Of a DNA stretch of 64,000 nucleotides, positions 800 to 63,964 are shown one piece after another. How positions within the stretch are numbered: position 1 is the stretch's first letter; each line of letters starts with the position of its first letter. The DNA comes from a virus. The stretch is from positions 19,757 to 83,756 of IMG/VR virus record IMGVR_UViG_3300033144_003384. One strand, 5' to 3'. Position numbers and translations under genes: made by a program. The notes beneath the pieces are model-generated. The model searched no databases. It was not told where the DNA came from and saw nothing but the letters and a program-made list of their open reading frames with translations.

Positions 800-820
800 C
801 CGGGGCTAATTGGGCACAAA

Positions 821-845
821 AGAAAGGCCGCCCGCTAAGGCGACC
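821..845 (-). terminator. Terminator of the minus-strand RNA unit
   Basis: On the minus strand GGTCGCC, a TTAG loop and CGGGCGGCC are followed by TTTCTTTTG. It ends the transcript carrying the RNAs at 896-1237. Confidence 0.7.
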
Positions 846-895
846 CTTCTCGTTTTGCTCTGACCCGTTTTGCTCCAGTTGGAGTGGGTACTGGC

Positions 896-975
896 TGGTG
901 GAGCTGGCGGGAATCGAACCCGCTTCCAGACATTTGCACTTCGGCATTTCAGTCTGTCGAAACCATTACAGCCCC
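896..975 (-). ncRNA. 80-nt tmRNA-like RNA lacking the tag-coding domain
   Basis: The 5' end GGGGCTG pairs with CAGCTCC next to an encoded ACCA, giving a tmRNA-type acceptor stem. The segment GGTTTCGAC matches the conserved D-loop region of tmRNA, which has no D stem. The T arm is GCGGG-TTCGATT-CCCGC. Between them a 5-bp helix (CAGAC/GTCTG), equivalent to P2, encloses a loop of only 20 nt where normal tmRNAs carry the tag reading frame and pseudoknots (about 270 nt more). No canonical anticodon arm fits. It is preceded after 1 nt by another CCA-ending RNA. It may be a trimmed tmRNA, a decoy, or a decaying copy. Confidence 0.7.
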
Positions 976-976
976 T

Positions 977-1056
977 TGGTGCCAACCTGCGGAATTGAAC
1001 CGCAGCCCCTTTCCCGATATCACTCGGGGGTTACCTTGGGTGTTTATCCCGTTGGC
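977..1056 (-). ncRNA. 80-nt tRNA-like RNA with encoded CCA
   Basis: GCCAAC at the 5' end pairs with GTTGGC before ACCA. The T arm is CTGCGG-TTCAATT-CCGCAG. In place of normal D and anticodon arms there is a GGG-ATAAACA-CCC hairpin and a CCCC...GGGG arm containing CCGA/TCGG. I could not fit a 7-nt anticodon loop with T33. It may be a non-canonical tRNA or a tRNA mimic. It is separated by exactly 1 nt from each neighbouring RNA and shares their promoter at 1267-1295. Confidence 0.6.
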
Positions 1057-1057
1057 A

Positions 1058-1237
1058 TGGTAGTTGCTCGATCCCCCTCCGGAGAGTGGGGGCAGTAGGG
1101 AGGCTATCCGCGTCTTACCTTTTCAGCAGGGCTCGTATTAGGTTTCCCCGCGCAGTCCCCGTTGGGGGCGATGCGGGTTTCGCTGCCGGAGGTTCACTCC
1201 CGTCCCCACACTCAGGGTGGGGATCGAACTGTCACTA
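1058..1237 (-). ncRNA. Structured 180-nt RNA ending in CCA
   Basis: The 5' segment TAGT...GTTCGATCCCC pairs with GGGGATCGAGC...ACTA just before CCA: an 11-bp helix with one wobble, plus 4 bp. The interior contains several more hairpins, including CCCCAC/GTGGGG, CCCC/GGGG and CCCCC/GGGGG. Reading frames overlapping it on either strand look non-coding. The family is unknown; the terminal stem and CCA make it look like an oversized tRNA-like RNA. Confidence 0.45.
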
Positions 1238-1266
1238 TTCAGTTGTCAAGGTGCTTTACTACCTAT

Positions 1267-1295
1267 AGTGTCTCACATAACCACCCTCTTGTCAA
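1267..1295 (-). promoter_or_regulatory. Promoter for the three-RNA unit
   Basis: TTGACA (1295-1290), 17 bp, GACACT (1272-1267). Predicted start near 1260, about 23 nt before the first RNA. Back to back with the plus promoter at 1329. Confidence 0.6.
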
Positions 1296-63478: not shown

Positions 63479-63623
63479 TTACAGGATTCTGGGTACAGAT
63501 TCAGTTTCACACGCGCAGGCCCACGGTAAAGGTGGGTGAGCTTGGGAACCGACCGTATAGTAGCGCTACAATACGCGGAAAGGCCTTTGTAACAAGGGGG
63601 TGAAGGCCCCTCCCTTCGCTTCC

Positions 63624-63694
63624 GATTCCCGAGCCAGACGGCCCGGCGGCGGATTGCAAACCCGCATAACTCGGTTCGACTCCGAGGGGAATCT
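63624..63694 (+). tRNA. tRNA-Cys (GCA)
   Basis: Acceptor GATTCCC/GGGAATC; loop TTGCAAA gives GCA; T loop TTCGACT. A TACAAT box with a weak -35 lies upstream at 63567. Confidence 0.85.
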
Positions 63695-63698
63695 CTAA

Positions 63699-63848: not shown

Positions 63849-63889
63849 CGACAGCCGAAGGGTTGTAAACAGTCGAAAGGCTGTATTGA

Positions 63890-63964
63890 GCTTCCTTAAC
63901 TCAACAAGCAGAGTCCGGCCTTTTAAGCCACGAGACGAGGGTGCAAGTCCTTCAGGAAGTACCA
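63890..63964 (+). tRNA. tRNA-Lys-like (TTT), degenerate
   Basis: Loop CTTTTAA and encoded CCA, but the anticodon stem keeps only 3 pairs. T arm is close to normal. May be a decaying or unusual tRNA. Confidence 0.5.

What the first reader, a model, noticed from the sequence alone, without database searches (positions are those of the whole stretch)
896..1237. Three tandem CCA-ending RNAs spaced by exactly one nucleotide
On the minus strand, RNAs of 180, 80 and 80 nt each end in CCA; gaps between them are 1 nt (1057 and 976). All share one promoter (1267-1295) and one terminator (821-845). Two contain T arms and acceptor stems without normal anticodon arms, the third is a long stem-closed RNA. 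Such one-nucleotide spacing suggests co-processing into CCA-bearing RNAs of a kind I do not recognise.
Basis: partly seen in the sequence, partly recalled or inferred. Interest (0 to 1): 0.85.

Follow-up and report, generated by a model that had tools for sequence, protein, structure and literature searches.

The report
Phage mini-tmRNA beside a tRNA mimic
A bacterial virus carries a cut-down copy of the cell's ribosome-rescue RNA, keeping only the tRNA-like end, next to a second tRNA-like RNA without an anticodon; over a hundred different versions of the cut-down RNA turn up in other phages, which suggests that phages commonly interfere with, or borrow, the host's rescue of stalled ribosomes.

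Summary
The region is real but is not three equivalent CCA-RNAs. The last RNA, 896-975(-), is a tRNA-like-domain-only tmRNA. It matches Rfam tmRNA end to end (71.9 bits, E 6.6e-27) but the tag reading frame and pseudoknots are replaced by a 30-nt hairpin. I found 128 distinct relatives, almost all in phage contigs and including cultured Streptomyces phages where they are unannotated. All 128 keep the alanine identity pair G3:U70 and A73, although the decisive search did not ask for it, while the other stems covary. A scan of 257 Gb of bacterial and archaeal genomes gave only two, one of them a phage contig. One precedent is published: mycobacteriophage DS6A, and TLD-only RNA inhibits host tmRNA in E. 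coli. Most likely the RNA is alanylated, binds host SmpB (the phage has none) and competes with host tmRNA at stalled ribosomes. The middle RNA, 977-1056, has a real acceptor stem, T arm and CCA, no anticodon arm, no known family and no relative. The first RNA is a strongly folded leader-like RNA with an rrn-leader-like motif; its 'CCA' lies partly inside a stem. One-nucleotide spacing is ordinary in this phage's tRNA array. Expression, charging and function are untested.

The parts
896..975 (-). TLD-only tmRNA (mini-tmRNA), 80 nt: acceptor 975-969/906-900 with G3 (973):U70 (902), D-loop-like GGUUUCGAC, P2 stem 956-952/931-927 closing a 20-nt hairpin in place of the mRNA-like domain, T arm 923-907, A73 at 899, encoded CCA 898-896
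   Evidence: Rfam RF00023 71.9 bits, E 6.6e-27, model 1-374; own CM R1 91.3 bits; 128 distinct relatives
977..1056 (-). tRNA-like RNA 2, 80 nt: acceptor GCCAAC/GUUGGC (7th pair G:G mismatched), D-loop-like AAGGUAA, middle arm CCCGA-GUGAUA-UCGGG without an anticodon loop, T arm UGCGG-UUCAAUU-CCGCA, A73, encoded CCA
   Evidence: Fold z -2.9; T arm + acceptor + CCA not reached in 100 random windows; not called by ARAGORN and no match to it in any Rfam family on this strand up to E 10
1058..1263 (-). RNA 1, structured leader-like RNA about 205 nt, closed by GGUAGU/ACUACC and a long GUUCGAUCCCC/GGGGGAUCGAGC stem; no T arm; CCA at 1060-1058 partly in the closing helix
   Evidence: Fold -83.8 kcal/mol, z -3.8; no Rfam family above its cut-off; no reading frame of note
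1233..1250 (-). CTTGACAACTGAATAGTG, similar to the boxA-type leader of Gram-positive rRNA operons (similarity from memory)
   Evidence: Only copy in the window; exact copies in two viral contigs, upstream of a tRNA-Gly and of another structured/tRNA-like RNA
1267..1295 (-). putative promoter TTGACA-N17-GACACT
   Evidence: read from the sequence; the -10 is weak (3 of 6) and the consensus scan did not list it
818..848 (-). putative intrinsic terminator, 10-bp stem AAGGGTCGCC/GGCGGCCTTT with tail TTTCTTTT
   Evidence: read from the sequence; weak Rfam hairpin-terminator-like hit 816-850 (ctRNA_p42d, 24.6 bits, below its cut-off); not listed by the scan

Best explanation
The unit is a small stable-RNA operon of a tailed phage of an actinobacterium. 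Its main product is a tmRNA stripped to the tRNA-like domain. Shown: it has the full tRNA-like domain, no mRNA-like domain, the alanine identity elements and an encoded CCA; the held phage sequence (83.8 kb) has no smpB and no second tmRNA; the same reduced RNA with the same architecture recurs in many phages and hardly at all in cells. Inferred: it is cut out by RNase P and 3' trimming, charged with alanine by host AlaRS, bound by host SmpB and EF-Tu, and enters ribosomes stalled at mRNA ends in competition with host tmRNA. Having no tag frame it cannot direct tagging or normal release, so the net effect is to lower host trans-translation during infection, which would spare incomplete phage proteins from tag-directed proteolysis or change how stalled ribosomes are cleared. 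RNA 2 is probably a second tRNA mimic from the same transcript and RNA 1 a structured leader with an rRNA-type antitermination or processing motif; their roles are not established.
For: End-to-end tmRNA match with the central ~300 positions missing. 116 distinct relatives from a scan that left the acceptor free except C66: all had G3:U70 and A73, while pair 4:69 showed five pair types; in all 128 of 128. P2 pairs in 92% of cells against 29-52% when slid, with up to six standard pair types per position. The full members score at least 55 bits with a CM that gives tRNAs at most 36 bits. The same idea scanned in 257 Gb of bacterial and archaeal genomes gave 33 stretches of which two are such RNAs, one a phage contig. 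No SmpB in G000 or in 47 viral records. None of the 34 viral/phage records searched holds a full-length tmRNA as well. WhiB and capsid/terminase genes point to an actinobacteriophage. Published: the DS6A TLD-only tmRNA, and inhibition of tmRNA by such a molecule (PMC4131195, PMC11915505, both citing Mao et al. 2009, which I could not read).
Against: No expression, charging or binding data. Inhibition by titrating SmpB is said to work whether or not the RNA can be charged (PMC4131195), so the strict conservation of G3:U70 says that charging matters and is not explained by pure titration. RNA 1 and RNA 2 have no detectable relatives, so their link to the mini-tmRNA rests on adjacency alone.
Confidence: 0.6

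Rival explanations
1. Tag-less rescue factor: the alanylated mini-tmRNA with SmpB enters stalled ribosomes and takes over the nascent chain, and the complex is then resolved without a tag, as has been proposed for mitochondrial tmRNAs that lost the mRNA-like region. It helps the phage instead of blocking the host system.
For: Universal alanine identity argues that the RNA takes part in peptidyl transfer. Mitochondrial tmRNAs without a tag frame are retained together with SmpB (PMC11915505).
Against: No way of release is known without a stop codon; a similar molecule inhibits tmRNA in E. coli (PMC4131195, PMC11915505).
Confidence: 0.2
2. tRNA decoys: RNA 2 and the mini-tmRNA soak up host factors other than SmpB (tRNA-cleaving defence nucleases, CCA or processing enzymes), sparing real tRNAs.
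For: Both lack an anticodon arm but keep acceptor, T arm and CCA; the phage also carries a large tRNA array.
Against: The tmRNA-specific D-loop motif GG-UUCGAC and G3:U70 are kept, which a general decoy would not need; an anticodon nuclease decoy would need the anticodon loop.
Confidence: 0.1
3. Relic: a decaying tmRNA, or an attP copy of the host tmRNA gene left by integration.
For: Phages do use tmRNA genes as attachment sites, e.g. subcluster K1 mycobacteriophages (PMC10865867).
Against: Both halves of the tRNA-like domain are present and paired; no tyrosine integrase in G000; compensatory changes and invariant identity elements across 128 sequences show selection.
Confidence: 0.05
4. Split tmRNA: RNA 1 supplies an mRNA-like domain in trans to the mini-tmRNA.
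For: A short frame GCU GAA AAG GUA AGA CGC GGA UAG lies in RNA 1.
Against: Base-pairing between RNA 1 and the mini-tmRNA is no better than with shuffled RNA (72 of 200 as good); P2 is closed in the mini-tmRNA; no relative has a comparable RNA directly upstream.
Confidence: 0.03

Closest known systems
TLD-only tmRNA of mycobacteriophage DS6A (Mao et al. 2009, cited in PMC4131195 and PMC11915505)
   Same: Phage-encoded RNA that is little more than the tmRNA tRNA-like domain; no tag frame
   Different: DS6A is not in the collections here, so its hairpin could not be compared; no companion tRNA-like RNA is described for it in the passages read
tmRNA / ssrA, Rfam RF00023
   Same: Acceptor with G3:U70, D-loop GG-UUCGAC, P2, T arm, CCA; end-to-end CM match
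   Different: No tag reading frame, no pseudoknots; 80 nt against about 350
Permuted two-piece tmRNA (RF04321), also found in phages
   Same: Processed from one transcript next to tRNAs
   Different: Gene order here is not permuted; the 23-bit permuted-model hit at 746-923 is far below its cut-off
Mitochondrial (jakobid, oomycete) and ~65-nt plastid tmRNAs without a tag frame (PMC11915505)
   Different: Organellar, partly permuted; not phage

Membership tests
tmRNA (RF00023) | tRNA-like domain: 7-bp acceptor with G3:U70, D-loop motif, T arm, A73-CCA | tested here: met
   alignment
tmRNA (RF00023) | mRNA-like domain with tag reading frame and pseudoknots | tested here: not met
   18-base middle where the model has 312 positions
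tmRNA (RF00023) | alanylation, SmpB binding, entry into stalled ribosomes | not testable with these tools
   sequence elements only
TLD-only phage tmRNA (DS6A type) | little more than the tRNA-like domain, in a phage genome, no integrase/attP explanation | tested here: met
TLD-only phage tmRNA (DS6A type) | homology of the internal hairpin to DS6A | not tested
   DS6A not held
tRNA (for RNA 2, 977-1056) | acceptor stem, T arm, CCA | tested here: met
   one acceptor mismatch at 7:66
tRNA (for RNA 2, 977-1056) | D arm and 7-nt anticodon loop; detection by ARAGORN or the tRNA covariance model | tested here: not met
permuted two-piece tmRNA | 3' acceptor piece encoded upstream of the 5' piece | tested here: not met

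The most novel reading that the evidence does not exclude
RNA 2 is a second, independent class of anticodon-less, CCA-bearing tRNA mimic made from the same transcript as the mini-tmRNA, so that the phage releases two different tRNA-like effectors against (or into) the host translation machinery, with RNA 1 as a dedicated structured partner or leader.
Probability: 0.25. Interest if true: 0.8.

Novelty: new variant of a known kind. Interest (0 to 1): 0.62.

Why it matters
Trans-translation is close to universal in bacteria, and whether phages attack or borrow it is open. The papers I could read name a single phage with a TLD-only tmRNA. Here the same reduced RNA is found in more than a hundred distinct forms in phages, under visible selection for alanine charging, together with a recurring internal hairpin. 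It occurs in cultured phages of Streptomyces lividans, S. mirabilis and S. turgidiscabies where it is not annotated, so the idea can be tested at once. It also means that phage annotation with tools that expect a tag frame misses this RNA.

Tried and rejected
DNA similarity of the region in cultured phages: none. Exact-gap pattern of the window's own mini-tmRNA in IMG/VR: none. Relatives through the nearby helicase: no mini-tmRNA in 38 records, only tRNA-like noise; the phages with the most similar terminase or capsid protease (Gordonia GMA6, DalanDe, Schomber, ChisanaKitsune; Brevibacterium Cantare) lack it. Blast hits to phage tmRNA 3' ends (Stenotrophomonas, Xanthomonas, Caulobacter, Pseudomonas phages) are permuted or full tmRNAs, not TLD-only. 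RNA 2 patterns in IMG/VR: none. Y-RNA idea for RNA 2 dropped: no Rfam hit and no Ro60/TROVE in the genome. attP idea: no tyrosine integrase. Split tmRNA: no RNA 1 to mini-tmRNA pairing beyond chance. The L171 copy of the leader motif is a chance match, probably inside a gene.

Full report
What is in the sequence. On the minus strand a TTGACA-N17-GACACT element (1295-1267) precedes three structured modules and a GC-rich hairpin with a T-rich tail (848-818). Promoter and terminator are read by eye; the consensus scan listed neither.

RNA 3, 896-975, is a tmRNA reduced to its tRNA-like domain. Rfam's tmRNA model aligns from position 1 to 374 with 71.9 bits (cut-off 47, E 6.6e-27), but 312 model positions are replaced by 18 bases. 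It has the 7-bp acceptor with G3:U70, the D-loop motif GGUUUCGAC, P2, the T arm, A73 and CCA. It is the only tmRNA in the 83,756-base virus record, which has no SmpB, no tyrosine integrase and no release factor. ARAGORN does not report it.

It belongs to a large phage family. A pattern scan of IMG/VR gave 91 stretches; 84 loci, the window's own copy among them, have the TLD-only layout with at least six acceptor pairs. With one cyanobacterial contig and the window counted, and a perfect 7-bp acceptor required, this makes 64 distinct RNAs of 66-90 nt. Position 70 was left free in that pattern, yet all 64 have G3:U70 (A73 was fixed by that pattern). In all there are 128 distinct sequences, 128 of 128 with G3:U70 and A73. 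P2 pairs in 92% of cells, against 29-52% with the partner slid by 1 to 3 bases, with up to six standard pair types per position. Inside P2 sits a short GC-rich hairpin, found in 108 of 120 inserts (69 of 120 after shuffling), usually preceded by AAR and followed by A; the window's AAAUGCCGAAGUGCAAA is of this type. A covariance model from 14 members separates the full members (at least 55 bits) from tRNAs (at most 36 bits). Cultured Streptomyces phages LuckySocke, GiJojo and pSt2308 carry unannotated copies (57-60 bits; in GiJojo an ORF is called over it), and Alone3 and a Vibrio phage carry weaker ones.

It is a phage RNA. The pattern in 257 Gb of bacterial and archaeal genomes gave 33 stretches, of which only two are TLD-only RNAs: a Prochlorococcus single-cell contig identical to a viral contig, and a cyanobacterium that also has a full tmRNA. 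None of 47 viral records with the RNA encodes SmpB, and none of 34 viral or phage records searched has a full tmRNA besides. Many of these records are fragments, so absence is not proof. If the RNA works as a tmRNA it most likely uses host SmpB and AlaRS.

RNA 2, 977-1056. Acceptor (6 of 7 pairs), T arm (5 of 5) and CCA were never matched together in 100 random 64-kb sequences, and the fold is better than 199 of 200 shuffles. It has no anticodon loop, is not called by ARAGORN, gives no Rfam match on its strand even at E 10, and no relative was found.

RNA 1, 1058-1263. Very stable (z -3.8), no T arm, CCA partly in its closing helix. Its first part holds CTTGACAACTGAATAGTG, which resembles the boxA-type leader of Gram-positive rRNA operons (from memory). 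Exact copies occur in two viral contigs: just upstream of a tRNA-Gly, and upstream of a structured region that ends in another anticodon-less tRNA-like fold. I take RNA 1 to be a structured leader; this is inference.

Host. The virus carries a WhiB gene, found only in actinobacteria and their phages (family, distribution from memory), and its closest terminases and capsid proteases are mostly those of actinobacteriophages, Gordonia first.

Function. Published: DS6A has a TLD-only tmRNA, and a similar molecule, chargeable or not, strongly inhibits tmRNA, perhaps by titrating SmpB (PMC4131195); PMC11915505 says this was shown in E. coli. The primary paper, Mao et al. 2009, was not held. The best reading is therefore a phage competitor of trans-translation. 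The new point is that alanine identity is kept without exception while neighbouring pairs change, which pure titration does not explain: the charged RNA, and so probably its entry into stalled ribosomes, seems to matter. Whether the outcome is a block or a tag-less rescue is open.

Comparison. As a tmRNA it fails a defining feature (no tag frame); as a TLD-only tmRNA it is the kind reported once from a phage in the papers I could read, with a companion tRNA mimic and a recurring internal hairpin. I call it a new variant of a known kind.

Noticed in passing
L265:12785-13101 (-): A viral contig with the same CTTGACAACTGAATAGTG leader, about 230 nt of folded RNA, then a tRNA-like fold with 7-bp acceptor, T arm and no anticodon arm: a possible distant parallel of the RNA 1 - RNA 2 layout.
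   Followed up: partly
L264:2648-2665, L267-L270, L272, L273, L277, L278: CTTGANAACTGNATAGTG, like a Gram-positive rRNA leader (boxA), often lies at the head of intergenic structured leaders in phage contigs; upstream of a pemK-RNA match in L269 and L272.
   Followed up: partly
L250:491-571, L251:491-571, L252:791-871, L253:479-558: Unannotated mini-tmRNAs in cultured Streptomyces phages LuckySocke, GiJojo, pSt2308 and (weaker) Alone3; in GiJojo gene 44 is called over it.
   Followed up: yes
window 63620-63696 and 63889-63963 (+): Two tRNA-like stretches in the tRNA array (one looks like tRNA-Cys, anticodon GCA) that ARAGORN does not report.
   Followed up: no
L223:7186-7269 (Cyanobacteria bacterium FACHB-471): The only TLD-only tmRNA seen in a cellular genome contig that is not plainly a phage; the genome also has a full tmRNA and SmpB. 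Prophage or cellular gene not decided.
   Followed up: partly
L250:340-490: Just upstream of the mini-tmRNA in LuckySocke lies a tRNA-like sequence with a long insert in the middle (possible intron or degenerate tRNA).
   Followed up: no
L007, L026, L043, L061, L091, L092 directly upstream of the mini-tmRNA: A long GC-rich hairpin ending in CACCCUUC or similar lies just before the mini-tmRNA in many viral contigs; possibly the terminator of the upstream gene or a processing signal.
   Followed up: no
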